From positions 1 through 26,279 of IMG/VR virus record IMGVR_UViG_3300042923_001034: a DNA stretch of 26,279 bases, one strand, 5' to 3'. Origin of the DNA: a virus. Position numbers and translations under genes: made by a program. Below are positions 1 to 14,751 of this stretch, piece by piece. The notes beneath the pieces were generated by a model, which searched no databases, was not told the origin of the DNA, and saw only the letters and a program-made list of their open reading frames with translations. Numbering within the stretch: the first letter of the stretch is position 1; each line of letters opens with the position of its first letter.

Positions 1-1099
1 CAACTATTAAGTAATCAGTCTTACTTGATACGCCACTTTTAATTACGCCTCCTAAATCAGCAACTAGCTGCATTGCTTCTCTGCGTTCATATTTTGAAAG
101 CTCTCCGGTAAAAACAACATTCTTCCCATAGAAAGGATTATTACAATCAGCAGTAATGCAGTCTGTTTCAATTTCTGAGATTTTAACAGTTTCAAATCCT
201 GTATAATTTTTACTGCCTCCAAAATATTGTTGATGTTTAAGTTCTGAATATTGCTTTATAGACAAACTTGAATAAACTTTAATGAATGATTGGAAAGACT
301 TTTTATTGCATTGCTTAACTGTCTCAATTACAATACTTGCACAAGCTTTTGCATCATCCAAAGCGTTATGATGTTTCTTTAATTCAACTCCTAAAGCTTC
401 AGCCATGGCATCCAATGTTCTTTTAGTATCGCCGCTACATGCCTTAGTAGAAATCGTAATACTATCCATATATCTAAAATCAGGTATATCAAGGTTATAT
501 TCCAATTGCAAACATTTAATTACACTCATATCAAATTGAGCATTATGAGCAATGATTATGTTATCGTAAAAATAATTTTTTATTTCATCCCAAACTTCAG
601 GGAATTTAGGGCTGTCCTTTACATCCTTAGCCATAACTCCATTTATTTCAATATTTTTAGCATTAAATCTCATAACCGGAGGACTAATTAAAAAATATTT
701 ACTACTTATTATTTGTAAATCTTTAACAACGACCAATCCAAGTGAACAAGCGCTGTTATTGTTATTATTTGCGGTTTCAAAATCTATTGCTATAAAATCA
801 GCTTCAATTGGTTTTATATTTTCATTTTGTGAATTGTTAACGGATTGTTTCACTACTGGATTAAGGATTATTTCTTTTGTAGGTTGTTGTTTTTTCAAAT
901 TAATCTTATTACGAGAAGTATCGTCAATAGGCTGCTGCTTTACTGTTGATTTTATTTTAGGTTTATTAAACATCCTTAAACCAAAAAATATAAATACTGC
1001 TGCTAAAACTAAGTATGTAAAATTACCCTCTTTTACTAATAAACTTATTGAAGAAATTCCACATAGAATCAAAAATAATGCAAGTGCTTTCTTAATCAA
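1..1099 (-). CDS. Membrane-anchored DEDD 3'-5' exonuclease with C-terminal BRCT domain (3' end cut by window)
   Basis: About 366 codons are visible and the frame runs off the left edge. I place the start at a TTG (1097-1099) because an AAGGGGGAA ribosome binding site lies just upstream. The first 42 residues form two hydrophobic segments (about 5-22 and 28-42), then a polar linker to about residue 100. The nuclease shows ExoI DFETA (D106, E108), ExoII AHNAQFD (near 185-190) and ExoIII HHNALDDAKA (near 243-250), the DEDDh signature of the DnaQ/RNase T superfamily. The tail, from about 323, reads KNVVFTGELS then GGVIKSGVSSKTDYLIV, a BRCT fold as in NAD-dependent DNA ligase. Such exonuclease-BRCT proteins occur beside repressor genes in clostridial prophages. 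The paired membrane anchor is unusual. The substrate is unknown; a role in DNA repair or processing at the membrane is inference. Confidence 0.85.
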   Translation of the reverse strand, partial: MIKKALALFLILCGISSISLLVKEGNFTYLVLAAVFIFFGLRMFNKPKIKSTVKQQPIDDTSRNKINLKKQQPTKEIILNPVVKQSVNNSQNENIKPIEADFIAIDFETANNNNNSACSLGLVVVKDLQIISSKYFLISPPVMRFNAKNIEINGVMAKDVKDSPKFPEVWDEIKNYFYDNIIIAHNAQFDMSVIKCLQLEYNLDIPDFRYMDSITISTKACSGDTKRTLDAMAEALGVELKKHHNALDDAKACASIVIETVKQCNKKSFQSFIKVYSSLSIKQYSELKHQQYFGGSKNYTGFETVKISEIETDCITADCNNPFYGKNVVFTGELSKYERREAMQLVADLGGVIKSGVSSKTDYLIV

Positions 1100-2223: not shown

Positions 2224-2236
2224 TTAACTACTCTTT
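2215..2236. repeat. 22-bp perfect palindrome spanning two convergent stop codons
   Basis: AAAGAGTAGTT is followed directly by its reverse complement AACTACTCTTT. Both strands read AAA GAG TAG, so both convergent genes end Lys-Glu-stop inside the same palindrome. There is no T-run on either side, so it is a weak terminator candidate at best. Confidence 0.7.
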
Positions 2237-2887
2237 GGGCTTACGTGCAATCTGAGTAGCTTGATCAATGCCTATTATATCAGCATATAATAGTTCATCT
2301 TCATAGCGTTTTACATACCAGCTTTCAATAAGATTCTCTATTAGCCTGATAAGTTTATTAGCTTCATCTGGATCAATATCTACTATAAGATTAATATCTG
2401 ATTCCATATGAGCACCAATATTGCCTATGCGACGTACACCATCAATTACTTTCCATTGTATTGGATGTATTTTATCTTTTAAAGTTTCAATTTCATCAAC
2501 TAATCGTGACTTCTTAATACCCCAAAAATCACGTATCATTCCTTGAAGACATCGTCTTGATAATGTTGCTGATGCTTTCGGACTTAAATTAACTATTGCA
2601 CAAGCTTCTTCATAATCTCCACGAATAGCTTGTGGTATGTACTCCGGAAATTGTTTGGCAAGAGAATTGGGATAAATCGGGATAAAAATATTTTTTATAT
2701 CATCACCAATACCTTGAGCATAAATACTAATTTTTAAACAATTAGGGCACTTATAAAATTTTAAATTTAGACTTTCTTTACGAACATTTTGTGAATCAGA
2801 ATTACTAAAATTGGGGTTGTATTCACTCAATGTATATTGATTAATAGCCATAGCATGGTCGCAAAAAGGGCAAGTGTATCCTGCCAT
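2228..2887 (-). CDS. Zinc-ribbon plus DUF4145 protein, accessory (moron) gene
   Basis: A protein of 219 aa on the strand opposite to the early genes. Two CxxC knuckles (C6/C9 in TCPFC, C47/C50 in KCPNC) form an N-terminal zinc ribbon. Residues about 90-205 match my recollection of DUF4145: SPKASATLSRRCLQGMIRDFW, then RRIGNIGAHMESD and DEANKLIRLIENLIESWYVKR. DUF4145 domains are often found near restriction-modification or other defence genes and in prophages, but their biochemical activity is not established. The gene has a perfect promoter at 2911-2939 and a good ribosome binding site (AAAGGATG), so it can be expressed in the lysogen independently of phage transcription. This, with its antisense placement, suggests cargo such as superinfection exclusion or host modulation. 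That is inference. Confidence 0.8.
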   Translation of the reverse strand: MAGYTCPFCDHAMAINQYTLSEYNPNFSNSDSQNVRKESLNLKFYKCPNCLKISIYAQGIGDDIKNIFIPIYPNSLAKQFPEYIPQAIRGDYEEACAIVNLSPKASATLSRRCLQGMIRDFWGIKKSRLVDEIETLKDKIHPIQWKVIDGVRRIGNIGAHMESDINLIVDIDPDEANKLIRLIENLIESWYVKRYEDELLYADIIGIDQATQIARKPKE

Positions 2888-9116: not shown

Positions 9117-9158
9117 AGCATGTAAGGAACACTTTTGTGTTATCAAGTAGGTGAGGAT

Positions 9159-9761
9159 ATGGTCAAGAGACCAGCAAATCCAATAAAACAGCCAAGCAAG
9201 GTGCTGGATATTCAGGATTATTTGAAAGAACAGAATGAAAGAGATTATGTGCTTTTCGTGCTGGGAGTAGCAACCGGTTACCGTGCTGGTGATCTTGTCG
9301 CACTTCAGGTCAGAGATATTAAGGCTGCTCTGCGGACCGGATATTTCAGGATTATGGAAGGAAAGAAGGCTAACAGCAAGAATATAAGAAAGTGCAATAT
9401 GAAGCCACGTGAAGTTGTGATAGTGGTAAAGCTTGAGAAAATCTTGAAAAATTACATCAAGGACAAGAAGGACTACGAGTACATGTTTCCATCCAGGAAA
9501 GGGAGCTATGATCACATAGGTGTTCCACGGGTATCCAATATACTTAAGGAAGCCGGAGAGGCATTTGGACTTGATAACATCACAGCTCACAGCATGCGCA
9601 AGACATATGCATACTGCATCTTTGTTGAAAGTAACTATAATATTGTTGTTGTGAAGGAGATGCTTGGACACAGCAGCATAGAAGAAACAAAAAGATATCT
9701 GGGATTAGACAGAAGAGACTATGACAATTACAGCAAAAGTCTCAATGCTCTAATCCTATAA
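9159..9761 (+). CDS. Minimal tyrosine recombinase (phage integrase family, no core-binding domain)
   Basis: A protein of 200 aa. The complete catalytic set is visible: R42 in ATGYRAGDL, K69/K70 in MEGKKANSK, H144-x-x-R147 in AHSMRKTY, H171 in MLGHSS, and nucleophile Y180 in KRYLGL. The usual N-terminal SAM-like core-binding domain of XerC/D and phage integrases is missing; the protein starts about 28 residues before the catalytic domain. ATG 9159 is preceded by AGGTGAGG; a TTG at 9135 is in frame but has no ribosome binding site. Such small recombinases occur between the late regulator and packaging genes in several clostridial phages. Two 35-37 bp inverted repeats immediately downstream are good candidate sites. 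It may resolve multimers or act in an exchange other than prophage integration. Confidence 0.85.
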   Translation: MVKRPANPIKQPSKVLDIQDYLKEQNERDYVLFVLGVATGYRAGDLVALQVRDIKAALRTGYFRIMEGKKANSKNIRKCNMKPREVVIVVKLEKILKNYIKDKKDYEYMFPSRKGSYDHIGVPRVSNILKEAGEAFGLDNITAHSMRKTYAYCIFVESNYNIVVVKEMLGHSSIEETKRYLGLDRRDYDNYSKSLNALIL

Positions 9762-9776
9762 TTTTTTATTTATCTT

Positions 9777-9811
9777 TTGAATGTTTTATATTTTGGTATA
9801 TGAACATTCGA
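9777..9811. repeat. Candidate recombinase core site 1 (imperfect inverted repeat)
   Basis: TTGAATGTTTTATA and ATATGAACATTCGA face each other across 7 bp. GAATGTT/AACATTC are exact. It starts 15 bp after the recombinase stop codon and shares its arm sequence with the second inverted repeat. Confidence 0.5.
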
Positions 9812-9857
9812 GGATAAAAAATATCAAGTATATACTGTATGAAGAAACAGGATTAAA

Positions 9858-9894
9858 TTGAATGTTTGATTTACTAAGAAAATGAAACATTCAA
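9858..9894. repeat. Candidate recombinase core site 2 (37-bp inverted repeat)
   Basis: TTGAATGTTTGATTT (9858-9872) and AAATGAAACATTCAA (9880-9894) are inverted copies matching at 14 of 15 positions, separated by 7 bp (ACTAAGA). This is the geometry of a tyrosine recombinase crossover site. There is no T-run, so a terminator is unlikely. Confidence 0.6.
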
Positions 9895-10112
9895 AACAAA
9901 CAATACGATTTAGAATTAAAACATTATCAAATAACATTCGTGTTTTTAAGAGCAATTTATTACAATAAAATAACTGTAATGATGACATCTTTTCAGTATG
10001 TGTGTTAGTATAAATTTATGTTCATTGTTAAGTTAAGAAGTTGACAAAATGGTTATAAATCCTCCTAAAAATTACATTGTATCCTCAGAGTGTCTTTTTA
10101 TGTAGAATATTG

Positions 10113-10141
10113 TAGACAGAAAATGTTTTCAGTTATATAAT
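10113..10141 (+). promoter_or_regulatory. Promoter of the NACHT gene with operator-like palindrome in the spacer
   Basis: TAGACA (10113-10118), a 17-nt spacer and TATAAT (10136-10141). The spacer is filled by a palindrome (10116-10133, arms ACAGAAAA and TTTTCAGT, one mismatch, 2-bp centre). The start codon is 34 nt beyond the -10 box. Confidence 0.8.
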
Positions 10142-10175
10142 TATTTTAAATTATACAATGGGGGGATAATGTGAA

Positions 10176-11996
10176 ATGAATGAGGAGTTTAATATAAATA
10201 CCGTAACTGGAGAAGTTATAATAAGCTTAGCAAAGACTTCAGCTTCAAATGTTTATAATGCTATAAAAAAGCATTATAAAGATATTAAAACTAAAGAAGA
10301 AATCGATTTTGGTGTTGCCTTTGAAAAATACTTAGAATTATCTTATAACAGCTATAGGAAAATAAAAACATTGATATATAGACAAGAACCAAAAGATTTA
10401 TATTCTTTTTATGAATGTATAGGCGTAAGTTGTGGAAAAAGAAAATTTATTGATACAAAAAGTATACATAATATTATAAACGTTGGGCATAAAATAATTA
10501 TAATAGGTACTGGCGGTATTGGTAAAACTACAATGCTAAAACATTTTTTTATAAACACTATAAAAGAAACTGATTATATACCTGTATTGGTTGAGTTACG
10601 CAAATTTAATGACAAAGATGTTAAAGATATATCTATATCTGATGCAATATATGAAAGCTTAACAAATTTTAGTTTTGACATAGACAAAAAGAATTTTGAA
10701 TATAGTATGGAAACGGGGTGTTATGTAATTTTATTAGATGGTTATGACGAAGTAAAACAGGAAATTACTCAAAAAGTAACGAAAGAAATATCTAATACAA
10801 GTGTTAAATATCCTAATAACTTTTATATTTTATCTTCAAGACCTAATGAAGAGTTTATTAGTTGGAATGATTTTACAGAAATGAGGGCTTTGCCATTAAA
10901 TAAAGAACAAGCTTTGTCATTAATAGATAAATTAGAATTTAATGAGGAAATAAAGAAAGTTTTTTACGAAGAGTTAAAAAACTCATTGTATGATAAGTAT
11001 GAATCTTTTGCTTCAAATCCATTGCTATTAACTATTATGTTATTAACTTTTGAAAATAGAGCATCTATACCTGATAAACTAAATGATTTTTATGAGCAAG
11101 CATTTGCTACGTTATTTAATATTCATGACGCTACTAAAGGTGGGGCATTTAAAAGAGATATAAGATGCAAATTGGGTTGTGAAGATTTTAAGTTGGTATT
11201 TGCTTATATATGTTTTAAATCATACTTTGTAAATCAATATGAATTTTCAGAAGCATCAATACTTGAATATATTGATAATGCCAAAACAAAATTTAAAGAT
11301 CATATATCATTTGAAACAGAAGATTTTAAAGAAGACTTAGTAAAATCAGTATGCATGTTGGTTAGAGAAGGTTTAAATTACAGATTTTCCCACAGATCGT
11401 TTCAAGAATATTTTTCTGCTTGGTATACTTGTAAGTTGACTGATGATATTCAGGAAAAACTAGTATCTGGATGGATAAAAGAAAGTGGTTTTTACGGGAA
11501 GGATAGCTATCTTTCAATGCTATATAACCTTCAAAATGAAAAATTTAATAAAATTATTTTAAAGCCTGGAATTAAAAAAATTAAAAATTACTATGAGCAA
11601 AATTCTTTTCTAGATTTTTTAGATATTTTATTTTCAGGCATATCAGTAAGTGAAGATCCTAAAAATAATTATAGAATAGGATTAAGAGTTAAAGATAGAT
11701 ATTTATGTACTATTCTTTCAATGTCATGCAGATTTAATGCATATAATTTTCCTGATAGAACTCATTCTAATTCGTCAATAGGAGAATATTTGTTTAAAAA
11801 ATATTTTAAAAAGCAAGGTGATAGGAGTATTATAGATTTTGAAGAATTAAAAAGTATGGATAATGTTGAAGAAGTATTAAATGATATTGAGTGGGTAAAA
11901 AGTGAAATAGAATTTTCTATTAACTTGCTGGAAAAAATGGGCGAAGATTCAATTGGAAATAAAAGAAAAGTAATATCAATATTAGAACAATTATAG
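10176..11996 (+). CDS. NACHT-domain STAND NTPase, candidate anti-phage NLR-like protein
   Basis: A protein of 606 aa. The NACHT core is complete: P-loop GTGGIGKTT (111-119), Walker B VILLDGYDEV (184-193, with the paired acidic residues), sensor-type SSRP (220-223), SNPLLLTIMLL (280-290), and the winged-helix motif FSHRSFQEYFSAWY (404-417). FYEQAFATLFNIHDATKGGAFKRD (305-328) is a motif I know from bacterial NACHT proteins. The N-terminal ~100 residues show no catalytic motif; FEKYLELSYNSYRKIKTLIYRQEPKDLYSFY leads into the NACHT. The C-terminal ~190 residues are helical, with no recognisable repeats. Bacterial NACHT proteins (bNACHT) protect against phages by an ATP-dependent, NLR-like response; here the role is inferred from domain and context. 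The gene is visibly richer in A+T than its neighbours, has its own promoter, a GGGGGG ribosome binding site and a strong terminator, and is the only gene between recombinase and HNH: a cargo cassette. Confidence 0.88.
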   Translation: MNEEFNINTVTGEVIISLAKTSASNVYNAIKKHYKDIKTKEEIDFGVAFEKYLELSYNSYRKIKTLIYRQEPKDLYSFYECIGVSCGKRKFIDTKSIHNIINVGHKIIIIGTGGIGKTTMLKHFFINTIKETDYIPVLVELRKFNDKDVKDISISDAIYESLTNFSFDIDKKNFEYSMETGCYVILLDGYDEVKQEITQKVTKEISNTSVKYPNNFYILSSRPNEEFISWNDFTEMRALPLNKEQALSLIDKLEFNEEIKKVFYEELKNSLYDKYESFASNPLLLTIMLLTFENRASIPDKLNDFYEQAFATLFNIHDATKGGAFKRDIRCKLGCEDFKLVFAYICFKSYFVNQYEFSEASILEYIDNAKTKFKDHISFETEDFKEDLVKSVCMLVREGLNYRFSHRSFQEYFSAWYTCKLTDDIQEKLVSGWIKESGFYGKDSYLSMLYNLQNEKFNKIILKPGIKKIKNYYEQNSFLDFLDILFSGISVSEDPKNNYRIGLRVKDRYLCTILSMSCRFNAYNFPDRTHSNSSIGEYLFKKYFKKQGDRSIIDFEELKSMDNVEEVLNDIEWVKSEIEFSINLLEKMGEDSIGNKRKVISILEQL

Positions 11997-12127
11997 TTAT
12001 ATTTTTATGACAAGGAAAGTATAGAAAATAAAATATGCGATGAATGGGTAGGTAGACATTTTAATTGTCCTCAATTAGGGATAATATATTCTGTTATACG
12101 AGTATGTTATTTATATTAAAACAGATT

Positions 12128-12156
12128 AAGGAACTCTTAAATAGGGTTCCTTTTTT
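12128..12156 (+). terminator. Strong intrinsic terminator after the NACHT gene
   Basis: AAGGAACTCT, loop TAAAT, AGGGTTCCTT give a 10-bp stem with one G-U pair and six Ts (12151-12156), the first two of which close the stem. It ends the NACHT transcription unit 130 bp after the stop codon. Confidence 0.88.
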
Positions 12157-12167
12157 ATTGTTTTGTG

Positions 12168-12197
12168 TTGATACGACTGATGTAAACTGTGTATGGT
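12168..12197 (+). promoter_or_regulatory. Weak candidate promoter for the HNH/packaging genes
   Basis: TTGATA (12168-12173), 18-nt spacer, TATGGT (12192-12197). Only a fair match, but it is placed just after the NACHT terminator, where a promoter would be needed to restart transcription of the late genes. Confidence 0.3.
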
Positions 12198-12249
12198 AAT
12201 ATATATCATTAGTCTATTAATGGGAGCTGATAGTTAAGATTATGATGTA

Positions 12250-12603
12250 TTGAATATATTTAATTTAGATGAAGTTGGCAGATGGGTTAGCAAACTTATA
12301 GTTGAGGATATGTTAGAAGAGTTCTATAACTCAAGGTACTGGCGCAAGATTAGGCGAGAAGTGTTAGAGGAATTTAAATATGAATGCCAGGATTGTAAAG
12401 CTGAAGGTTATTACACTAAGGCTGATACAGTTCATCATGAACAATTTGTGAGAAATTATCCAAGGCTTGCGCTGAGCAAAACTTATTTTCACCAAGGTAT
12501 TGAGTATAATAATCTGATACCTTTATGCCACGATCATCATGAACGACGACACGGTTATAGACAAAAGCAAAAGAAAAAAACGTTGACTGTTGAAAGATGG
12601 TAA
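12250..12603 (+). CDS. Phage HNH endonuclease
   Basis: A protein of 117 aa. N-terminal helix MNIFNLDEVGRWVSKLIVEDMLEEFYNSRYWRKIRREVL, then zinc knuckle CQDCKAEGYY, the catalytic TVHHEQFVRNYPRLALSKTY and the NLIPLCHDHHERRHG metal and catalytic motif, as in HNH proteins coded beside terminases of cos phages, where they assist DNA cleavage during packaging. The frame starts at TTG 12250 with no good ribosome binding site; GGGAGCTGA is about 20 nt upstream, too far. The upstream part may have been changed when the NACHT cassette came in, or translation may start at another non-ATG codon in this frame (stop at 12235). Confidence 0.9.
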   Translation: MNIFNLDEVGRWVSKLIVEDMLEEFYNSRYWRKIRREVLEEFKYECQDCKAEGYYTKADTVHHEQFVRNYPRLALSKTYFHQGIEYNNLIPLCHDHHERRHGYRQKQKKKTLTVERW

Positions 12604-12672: not shown

Positions 12673-12713
12673 CAGAAGAGATAATGCTCCGCGCATGAGG
12701 GGGTGGTTTGAAA

Positions 12714-13067
12714 ATGAGTGAAGAAAAAATTACGAACGATGAGTTCAAGAAATATTACAGGGCAAAATTGTATAAGGAAATTAAAAAGGATCTTCTTGAT
12801 CAGAATGAACGTAATGGAACCATAGGAAAATATTATGTTGATCTCATAGAAGACTATATGGATATGTGGGTAACTAAATGCCTCCTGATAAAAGATATTA
12901 AAGAGCGAGGAGTTAGTGTTGAATATAACAATGGTGGGGGACAGATTGGAATTAAAAAAAATGAATGTGTAGACCAGCTTATGAAAATAAATGCTCAAAT
13001 GCTAAAACTATTAGCCGAAGTGGGAATAAAACCTGCCCAGGCTGGTGGTGATGAAGATGAACTCTAA
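12714..13067 (+). CDS. terS: Terminase small subunit (P27-like)
   Basis: A protein of 117 aa from ATG 12714 (GAGGGGGTGG upstream; an earlier in-frame TTG is too close to it). Helical, with KKYYRAKLYKEIKKDLLDQNERNGTIGKYYVDLIEDYMDMWVTKCLLIKDIKERGVSVEY, then QIGIKKNECVDQLMKINAQMLKLLAEVGIKP. This is the pattern of P27-family small terminases (KNP at the end of the core replaced here by KKNEC). It binds phage DNA at the packaging site and delivers it to TerL. It overlaps terL by 11 bp; its stop codon lies in a 12-bp tandem repeat. Confidence 0.88.
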   Translation: MSEEKITNDEFKKYYRAKLYKEIKKDLLDQNERNGTIGKYYVDLIEDYMDMWVTKCLLIKDIKERGVSVEYNNGGGQIGIKKNECVDQLMKINAQMLKLLAEVGIKPAQAGGDEDEL

Positions 13068-14751
13068 AATTAACTCTAAAATTAACTCTAAAATTAACCC
13101 ACATATTTTACGCTACATAGAAGCTGTGGAAAAAGGAAAGATAGAAGCATGTGAAGACCAGCATTTATTAGTTGCCCTAATCAGAAAGTGTTTTAAAACT
13201 GAAGATATATATACTGATGATGAGCAATTAGAAAAATATTTTGGCCTTACAAAGTACTTTCCTTATGAACAGCTCTTTGACTGGGAAGAATTTGTTTTTG
13301 CTTTACATTGCTGCACATATAGAGCAGATGGCTTGCCACGTTGGCCAGATTTATTTTTGCTGATAGGTAGAGGTGCTGGGAAAGATGGTTATATAGCATT
13401 CGAAAGTTTTGCTTTGACATCTCCGTATAATGGTATTAAGCATTATGATGTTGACATTTGTGCGAATAGTGAGCAGCAGGCAAAAGCTCCTTTTGATGAT
13501 ATATATGGAGTGTTAGAAACACCTAATCAAATAAAGAAACTTAAAAAGCATTATTATTGGAATAAAGAAGAGATATTAAATTTAAAAACTAAATCTAAAA
13601 TAAAATATAGGACAAATAACCCAAAAGGTAAAGATGGTTTACGCTCCGGAATTGTAGTTTTTAATGAAATACATCAGTACGAAGATTATGCGAACATAAA
13701 TGTATTTACAACAGGATTAGGGAAGAAACCACATCCTCGAAGAACATATGCAACAACCAATGGAGATGTAAGAGATGGTCCTTTGGATCATATGATTGAA
13801 AGAGCGCAACAAATATTAAAAGGCAATATTTCAGATAATGGAATGTTGCCTTTTATTTGCAGGCTAAATAAAAAAGAAGATGTTGACAATCTTAAAAATT
13901 GGGAAATGGCTAATCCTTCTTTGAAATACCTGCCTAGCTTAAGAGAAGAAATTCAAAAAGAATATCATGACTGGAAACTTAATCCTTCACAATTTAGTGC
14001 ATTTATGACAAAACGTATGAATATACCAGATGGCAACAAAGAGATTGAAGTAACTTCATGGGAGAATATCCTTGCAGCATGTGGAGATGTCCCAAATCTA
14101 TCTGGCAAAAAGGGAGTAGTGGGAATAGATTATGCAAGCGTAACAGACTTTGCGAGTGCTGGAATACTAGTTAGAGTTGGAGATAAAAGATATTGGATAA
14201 CTCACTCATGGGTGTGTGTTCATTCTTTGGATCTACCAAGGATTAAGGCTCCTGTACATGAGTGGGCAAAACAAGGATTGCTTACATTTGTTGATGAAGC
14301 TGAAATTAATCCAGATTTAATAGCTGAATGGATTGCGGAGCAGGCAATAAAATACAACCTGCCAAAATTAGCGTTAGATGGATTTAGATACGCTTTGGTT
14401 GCTGCATCACTAAAAAAAATAGGTTTTGATTACAAGGATTACAAAAATATTAAGTTAGTTAGACCTACAGATGTAATGATGATTGAACCAGTTATAAAAA
14501 GCTGTTTTATAAATCAAAATTTTGCTTGGGGAGATAATCCTCTGATGCGTTGGGCAGTTAATAATACTAAAAAGGTTAGGTCAGGAAAAAAAGAAGGAAC
14601 AGACACAGGTAATTATTATTATGCCAAAATTGAAGGCAAGAGCAGAAAGACGGATCCATTCATGGCATTAGTTGCAGCAATGACAATTGAAAGTGAATTG
14701 GGCGACGGAGGAAGTTCTGAGACACCTGATATTGATGTTTATACATATTAG
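13057..14751 (+). CDS. terL: Terminase large subunit (Terminase_1 type)
   Basis: A protein of about 564 aa. Walker A variant GRGAGKDG (about 104-111), Walker B IVVFNEIHQ (about 199-207), then the nuclease domain starting GVVGIDYASVTDFASAG (active-site Asp near 358) with later acidic sites VDEAE and TDPFMALVAAM. Catalyses ATP-driven packaging and headful or cos cleavage. Start uncertain: GTG 13045, GTG 13048, ATG 13051 and ATG 13057 are all in frame; GGTGG at 13044-13048 is best spaced for 13057. The first codons contain three tandem 12-bp units coding Asn-Ser-Lys-Ile. Confidence 0.95.
   Translation: MNSKINSKINSKINPHILRYIEAVEKGKIEACEDQHLLVALIRKCFKTEDIYTDDEQLEKYFGLTKYFPYEQLFDWEEFVFALHCCTYRADGLPRWPDLFLLIGRGAGKDGYIAFESFALTSPYNGIKHYDVDICANSEQQAKAPFDDIYGVLETPNQIKKLKKHYYWNKEEILNLKTKSKIKYRTNNPKGKDGLRSGIVVFNEIHQYEDYANINVFTTGLGKKPHPRRTYATTNGDVRDGPLDHMIERAQQILKGNISDNGMLPFICRLNKKEDVDNLKNWEMANPSLKYLPSLREEIQKEYHDWKLNPSQFSAFMTKRMNIPDGNKEIEVTSWENILAACGDVPNLSGKKGVVGIDYASVTDFASAGILVRVGDKRYWITHSWVCVHSLDLPRIKAPVHEWAKQGLLTFVDEAEINPDLIAEWIAEQAIKYNLPKLALDGFRYALVAASLKKIGFDYKDYKNIKLVRPTDVMMIEPVIKSCFINQNFAWGDNPLMRWAVNNTKKVRSGKKEGTDTGNYYYAKIEGKSRKTDPFMALVAAMTIESELGDGGSSETPDIDVYTY
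13060..13095. repeat. Three tandem copies of a 12-bp unit at the terS/terL overlap
   Basis: AACTCTAAAATT is repeated exactly three times, followed by AAC. The terS stop codon TAA is in the first copy. In the terL frame each unit codes Asn-Ser-Lys-Ile, so changes in copy number keep the frame. Confidence 0.9.

What the first reader, a model, noticed from the sequence alone, without database searches (positions are those of the whole stretch)
10176..11996. NACHT/NLR-like defence gene carried as cargo in a phage late region
The complete NACHT core (P-loop 111-119, Walker B 184-193, FSHRSFQEYF winged-helix motif 404-413) is present. It lies in a separate transcription unit with its own promoter and terminator between the recombinase and the HNH gene, and its A+T content is clearly higher than that of its neighbours. 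Bacterial NACHT proteins are established anti-phage factors; carriage by a prophage suggests protection of the lysogen against rival phages. The first ~100 residues have no recognised effector motif and the C-terminal ~190 residues have no sensor repeats I can name, so this could be an undescribed subtype.
Basis: partly seen in the sequence, partly recalled or inferred. Interest (0 to 1): 0.75.

Follow-up and report, generated by a model that had tools for sequence, protein, structure and literature searches.

The report
Phage-borne bacterial NLR-like defence gene
A bacterial virus carries, as an optional extra gene, a short relative of animal inflammasome proteins of a kind already shown to protect bacteria against viruses; it is a new example of a known kind, with an unsolved sensor domain.

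Summary
Window 10176-11996 is an intact 606-aa ORF with a complete NACHT module (Pfam NACHT, E 4e-6; confident AlphaFold2 model whose best PDB matches are NLRC4, NOD2 and NLRP3). It is A+T-rich (GC 25.5% against 33-41% in the neighbours compared), with a promoter-like site before it and a good intrinsic terminator behind it. It is cargo: relatives with 94-98% identical recombinase and terminase lack it (none of 42 comparable loci has it), and in one the 2.3-kb segment is replaced by about 20 bp.

The 'undescribed subtype' idea is not supported. The C-terminus is a full-length match to Pfam SNaCT7, and SNaCT domains without a recognisable effector define 'clade 14' bNACHT proteins, members of which defend E. 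coli against phages. Phage carriage of the kind is also on record (PHROG 18297; Vibrio phages with a bNACHT01-labelled gene).

Best explanation: an accessory STAND switch. SNaCT7 senses infection, the NACHT module assembles, and infected cells stop, shielding the lysogen. Sensing, effect and protection are inferred. Still open: the ~45-residue N-terminus is the only room for an effector, and the sensor has no structural match in the PDB.

The parts
10176..11996 (+). Short bNACHT gene, 606 aa: N-terminal helices (~1-60), NACHT module, SNaCT7 C-terminal domain
   Evidence: ORF; Pfam NACHT 107-226 and SNaCT7 450-606; PHROG 18297 E 1e-101; AlphaFold2 pLDDT 86.5; Foldseek NLRC4/NOD2/NLRP3
10176..10355 (+). 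Residues 1-60: helices 7-45 and 47-60; residues 1-45 are the position where long relatives carry an extra N-terminal part
   Evidence: DSSP on the model; length offsets of 65 long relatives; no Pfam effector in the window protein; no membrane span by hydropathy
10506..10532 (+). Walker A / P-loop GTGGIGKTT, residues 111-119
   Evidence: conserved in 144 homologues
10725..10754 (+). Walker B region VILLDGYDEV, residues 184-193
11385..11414 (+). Winged-helix motif FSHRSFQEYF, residues 404-413
11523..11996 (+). SNaCT7 domain, residues 450-606, presumed sensor
   Evidence: PF22712 1-160/160, E 4.5e-19; model pLDDT 85.4 with no PDB match at E <= 0.001; 28% mean identity to the 20 closest homologues vs 58% for the core
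10113..10141 (+). Promoter-like site TAGACA-17-TATAAT
   Evidence: 11 of 12 consensus, 2 of 300 shuffles as good; prediction only
12128..12152 (+). Intrinsic-terminator-like hairpin followed by T-run
   Evidence: prediction only
9959..12242 (+). Accessory segment, absent from close phages; in L243 homology jumps from 9958 to 12243 with about 20 bp between
   Evidence: blastn against L168/L242, L241, L243, L244, L246; aligned left edges
9135..9761 (+). Small tyrosine recombinase (context, left neighbour)
   Evidence: Pfam PF00589 E 1.6e-19; PHROG 216 integrase
12250..12603 (+). HNH endonuclease (context, right neighbour)
   Evidence: PHROG 119/144
12708..14751 (+). Terminase small and large subunits (context)
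   Evidence: PHROG 5110 and 9

Best explanation
The gene encodes a short bNACHT (bacterial NLR-related) protein of the SNaCT-bearing kind, carried as an optional cargo gene by a probably temperate Clostridia-type tailed phage at the junction between its late regulator/recombinase and its terminase. It most likely works as a single-protein STAND switch: the fast-changing C-terminal SNaCT7 domain senses a product or effect of infection; the NACHT module then exchanges ADP for ATP, opens and oligomerises; the clustered N-terminal helices trigger growth arrest or death of the infected cell, so a rival phage gets no burst and the resident phage's siblings are spared. Shown here: intact gene, NACHT module and fold, SNaCT7 domain, accessory status, presence of the same family in unrelated phages and beside recombinases elsewhere. 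Inferred: expression from its own promoter in the lysogen, sensing, oligomerisation, the nature of the effect, and protection.
For: Pfam NACHT and full-length SNaCT7 above cut-offs. AlphaFold2 model (pLDDT 86.5, pTM 0.79) whose best PDB matches are NLRC4, NOD2 and NLRP3, the best superposition being activated NLRC4 (8fvu_B, TM 0.51 by query length). Clade 14 bNACHTs all carry SNaCT domains and lack discernible effectors; bNACHT02 and bNACHT12 of that clade protect against DNA and RNA phages (PMC12169576). Cargo: absent from near-identical phages and from all 42 backbone loci with enough upstream sequence. The closest relative (L088, 56% overall, 73% in the core) lies directly upstream of TerS/TerL/portal of a different phage backbone; L008 (= L096) and L137 also lie among phage genes; a Vibrio phage carries a SNaCT11 bNACHT labelled NLR_like_bNACHT01. 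SNaCT7 is patchy: 4 of 291 genomes sampled from the class. Small (1-5 kb) phage loci with high turnover are known reservoirs of defence systems (PMC9122126).
Against: No activity data. PADLOC gives no credible hit for this protein (best E 4e-4, to an RT-defence model), so it is far from the models held there. The published clade-14 sequences were not at hand, so the clade was not tested by tree. No effector is recognisable. Other genes at or near the same junction in relatives (DUF898, Transgly_assoc, peroxiredoxin) are not known defence genes, so the place itself does not prove a defence role.
Confidence: 0.72

Rival explanations
1. Lysogeny or self-control switch: the NACHT protein monitors the carrying phage's own late products and limits or times its own lytic cycle rather than excluding rivals.
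For: A bacterial CARD-NLR-like system controls release of gene transfer agents, which are domesticated prophages (PMC13236601). The gene lies at the early/late junction.
Against: It is absent from near-identical phages that must regulate themselves without it, it has its own predicted promoter and terminator, and it occurs in unrelated backbones and outside phages.
Confidence: 0.08
2. Effector-less decoy: a NACHT-SNaCT protein that co-oligomerises with host bNACHT proteins and disarms them, i.e. counter-defence.
For: The N-terminus has only about 45 residues before the conserved core, while 65 relatives carry an extra N-terminal part at the same place.
Against: Clade-14 bNACHTs with the same effector-poor architecture protect on their own in E. 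coli (PMC12169576). Catalytic residues are intact.
Confidence: 0.07
3. Neutral passenger: a recently acquired A+T-rich gene with no benefit to phage or host.
For: Very low GC (25.5%) and scattered distribution.
Against: The ORF is intact with nucleotide-binding and winged-helix motifs conserved, and the family recurs in several phages.
Confidence: 0.12

Closest known systems
Clade 14 bNACHT proteins (bNACHT02, bNACHT12 and others; Kibby et al. 2023 as described in PMC12169576)
   Same: Single protein; central NACHT module; SNaCT C-terminal domain; no discernible effector domain
   Different: SNaCT family 7, in Clostridia and their phages; the clade-14 members discussed in PMC12169576 were assayed in E. 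coli. No sequence comparison with the published members could be made here, because the sequences were not held
NLR_like_bNACHT01 gene of Vibrio phage 10N.286.49.B11_PE003 (PQ189336, 12520-14310)
   Same: Phage-carried short NACHT-SNaCT protein of about 600 aa
   Different: About 26-27% identity over the shared core; SNaCT11 instead of SNaCT7; a 15-kb Tectiliviricetes phage instead of a tailed phage with HK97-type packaging genes
Clostridium sp. Cult3 prophage bNACHT (L088, NZ_PPXY01000057)
   Same: 56% identity (73% in the core), closest relative found, directly upstream of TerS/TerL
   Different: C-terminal domain only 24% identical; different phage backbone, no recombinase/HNH neighbours of the window type
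AVAST (Avs) STAND defence proteins
   Same: STAND-type NTPase switch, phage defence role
   Different: Avs proteins are larger, with recognised N-terminal effectors and long repeat-type C-terminal sensors (own knowledge); no Avs model matched

Membership tests
bNACHT / NACHT-clade STAND NTPases | NACHT module with Walker A, Walker B (DGxDE) and winged-helix HRSFQEYF-type motif | tested here: met
   Pfam NACHT over its cut-off; motifs conserved in 144 homologues; fold match to NLRC4, NOD2, NLRP3
Clade 14 bNACHT (SNaCT-bearing) | C-terminal SNaCT domain | tested here: met
   PF22712 SNaCT7, 69.4 bits vs cut-off 27, 160 of 160 positions; 22 of 51 aligned short relatives match it
Clade 14 bNACHT (SNaCT-bearing) | No discernible N-terminal effector domain | tested here: met
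   No Pfam match before residue 97; two helices only up to residue 60
Clade 14 bNACHT (SNaCT-bearing) | Position within clade 14 of the published NACHT tree | not tested
   The 2023 paper is not held, so the published sequences were not at hand; only a tree of the homologues found here was made
Clade 14 bNACHT (SNaCT-bearing) | Protection against phage that depends on the NACHT module | not testable with these tools
   needs plaque assays
Bacterial NLR sensu stricto (NACHT + leucine-rich repeats) | C-terminal leucine-rich repeats | tested here: not met
   C-terminus is SNaCT7, helical with a short beta element; no LRR match
AVAST (Avs1-5) | Match to Avs family models | tested here: not met
   PADLOC: no Avs hit at E <= 1
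CARD-NLR systems | CARD-like domain or protease partner gene next to the NLR gene | tested here: not met
   Single gene flanked by recombinase and HNH/terminase; no CARD-type Pfam match in the protein

The most novel reading that the evidence does not exclude
The NACHT gene is one insert of a dedicated exchange site: the small recombinase and its conserved inverted-repeat array (9762-9958) mark a programmed left edge at which Clostridia phages swap cargo and late modules, defence genes included.
Probability: 0.1. Interest if true: 0.7.

Novelty: new member of a known kind. Interest (0 to 1): 0.32.

Why it matters
It adds a clear case of a short NLR-related protein moved by a phage, with an empty-site comparison between near-identical phages. 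The SNaCT7 group (confident models, no solved structural relative, only about 45 N-terminal residues to act with) makes a specific question testable: how an NLR without a recognisable effector stops infection. The breakpoint at the recombinase's repeat array gives a concrete place to look for further cargo in Clostridia phages.

Tried and rejected
(1) Undescribed subtype: rejected, SNaCT7 covers the C-terminus. (2) Sensor exchange between NACHT cores: a first tree test suggested conflict (AU p 0.002 against grouping the window's C-terminus with L088's), but the core data do not reject the alternative grouping (p 0.335) and the conflict vanished when long-branch rows L101 and L102 were left out; not claimed. 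(3) Membrane-inserting N-terminus: no hydrophobic span (best 19-residue hydropathy 0.72 in the N-terminal part, 1.08 in the whole protein). (4) Effector lost relative to long relatives: 60 N-terminal parts of long relatives give no meaningful Pfam match, so no effector type could be assigned. (5) Flanking direct repeats as insertion traces: none convincing. (6) Structured RNA in the window: no Rfam match. (7) The small recombinase as the prophage integrase: unlikely, since several relatives also encode a larger integrase, and C. difficile phages with it are circular records, one with an annotated ParA. (8) First single-protein scan of viral contigs gave nothing; an alignment query found 125.

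Full report
What was checked. Pfam places NACHT at 107-226 and SNaCT7 (Short NACHT-associated C-Terminal domain, family 7) at 450-606 over the whole profile. PHROG 18297, a phage family of unknown function, matches residues 15-475 at E 1e-101, so phage copies were already in public data without a name. PADLOC gives nothing useful for this protein.

Structure. An AlphaFold2 model from 51 window and locus sequences has mean pLDDT 86.5 and pTM 0.79. Its best PDB matches are NLRC4, NOD2 and NLRP3 (E down to 9e-13); the best superposition by query length is with activated NLRC4 (8fvu_B, TM 0.51). The model begins with a 39-residue helix (7-45) and a second helix (47-60), then the NACHT module, then a mostly helical C-terminal domain with a short beta element. 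The C-terminal domain alone is also predicted well (pLDDT 85.4, pTM 0.81) but has no PDB match at E <= 0.001: its fold is unsolved as far as this copy of the PDB goes.

Relatives. An alignment query found 125 encoding stretches in viral contigs and 114 in genome contigs, 80 kept of each. About 20 are near full-length relatives at 46-56% identity in Clostridia and their prophages. The core (46-425) averages 58% identity to the 20 closest, the C-terminus 28%, as expected of a sensor under diversifying pressure, although simple relaxation would look alike. In 65 relatives an extra N-terminal part precedes the conserved core that starts near residue 48; none of 60 such parts scanned gives a meaningful Pfam match. 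Short relatives have about 45 residues there. This supports a modular N-terminal effector position, occupied here by a short helical segment.

Cargo status. The phage L168/L242 matches the window at 97.6% over the 10.1 kb held from TerS onward and 91.9% around the recombinase, yet lacks the gene and has a 91-aa ORF instead (recombinase-to-HNH distance 809 vs 2489 bp). In L243 the homology jumps from window 9958 to 12243 with about 20 bp between, an almost empty site. Other relatives have DUF898 or Transgly_assoc genes at the same place and, between HNH and TerS, a peroxiredoxin. No NACHT match was found in any backbone locus; 42 of them have at least 3 kb upstream of the terminase. In the class sampled, SNaCT7 is in 4 of 291 genomes.

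Other carriers. The closest relative, L088, sits directly upstream of TerS, TerL and portal of a different phage; L008/L096 sits between a DNA methyltransferase and, some 4 kb on, TerS/TerL; L137 lies beyond endolysin and holin genes; L009 lies near an integrase. Non-phage copies lie next to recombinase or integrase genes, a type I restriction system or a GMP synthase gene (L089, L094, L097, L098, L100), and in streptococci between housekeeping genes. Gene names are read from the sequence by eye, except those checked.

Expression. The gene is on the late-gene strand but has a near-consensus sigma-70-like site 35 nt upstream (2 of 300 shuffles as good) and a terminator-like hairpin before the HNH gene. 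This fits expression from the quiescent prophage without reading into the late operon; it is a prediction.

How it most likely works. By analogy with the SNaCT-bearing bNACHT proteins of clade 14, members of which give phage defence in E. coli without a discernible effector (PMC12169576), SNaCT7 is the likely sensor, the NACHT module the switch and assembly platform, and the N-terminal helices the output. The trigger is unknown; clade 14 members tested did not need DnaJ, unlike clade 6 (PMC12169576). Everything after the anatomy is inference.

Comparison with the known. Short phage hotspots with fast turnover between two conserved genes are known reservoirs of defence genes (PMC9122126); the P2 hotspot lies beside cos, and this junction lies beside the terminase. 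A bNACHT01-labelled gene is annotated in a Vibrio phage. This is therefore a new member of a known kind.

A side finding. The 208-aa tyrosine recombinase upstream (9135-9761) is followed by two inverted repeats, GAATGT(N)ACATTC, at 9779-9809 and 9860-9892 (0.01 expected in the window), and by a third, looser pair ending TTCGTGTTTT. The array is kept downstream of the same recombinase in relatives, including some without an ArpU match, so it tracks the recombinase. In all but one of 79 phage pairs, DNA homology ends 32-123 bases after the start of the second repeat, even among pairs 94-98% identical up to there. Some of these phages also encode a larger integrase, and C. difficile phages with the recombinase are circular records, one with an annotated ParA. 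The recombinase is thus probably not the integrase; resolution of multimers or exchange at this site are both open.

Noticed in passing
window 9135-9958: Small tyrosine recombinase followed by a conserved non-coding array of two inverted repeats (GAATGT..ACATTC) and a third looser pair (ACGAA..TTCGTGTTTT) around a variable stretch of about 28 nt. In 78 of 79 phage pairs DNA homology stops 32-123 bases after the start of the second repeat, even at 94-98% identity.
   Followed up: partly
L275, L276, L277 (C. difficile phages AR1075-1, phiCD08011, Hain-Saunders-2022a): Phages with the same small recombinase are circular records; phiCD08011 has an annotated ParA. Other carriers have a second, larger integrase, so the small recombinase is not tied to one lifestyle.
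   Followed up: partly
window 2-1099 (-): ORF cut by the window edge that looks by eye like a 3'-5' exonuclease with a C-terminal BRCT-type part, next to the repressor; phiCD08011 has a gene annotated DNA polymerase III near ParA and the repressor. The window phage might be plasmid-like, but ParA would lie outside the window.
   Followed up: no
N-terminal parts of long NACHT relatives, e.g. L022:8326-9018, L025:8455-9120, L028:3117-3962: 60 long relatives of the NACHT protein carry extra N-terminal parts with no meaningful Pfam match; the alignment consensus shows a shared LCFGTF motif. Possible unnamed effector domains.
   Followed up: partly
L243:9369-10142 (also in L171): A peroxiredoxin (AhpC-TSA with 1-Cys Prx C-terminal domain) gene is carried between HNH and TerS in a close phage.
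   Followed up: no
L097 and L098: In two Lachnospiraceae-type genomes the NACHT gene follows what looks by eye like a GMP synthase gene, a possible shared insertion place for mobile elements.
   Followed up: no
window 2228-2887 (-): DUF4145 protein (PHROG 1305 DNA binding protein) encoded against the early genes, beside the repressor region; possibly another accessory gene.
   Followed up: no
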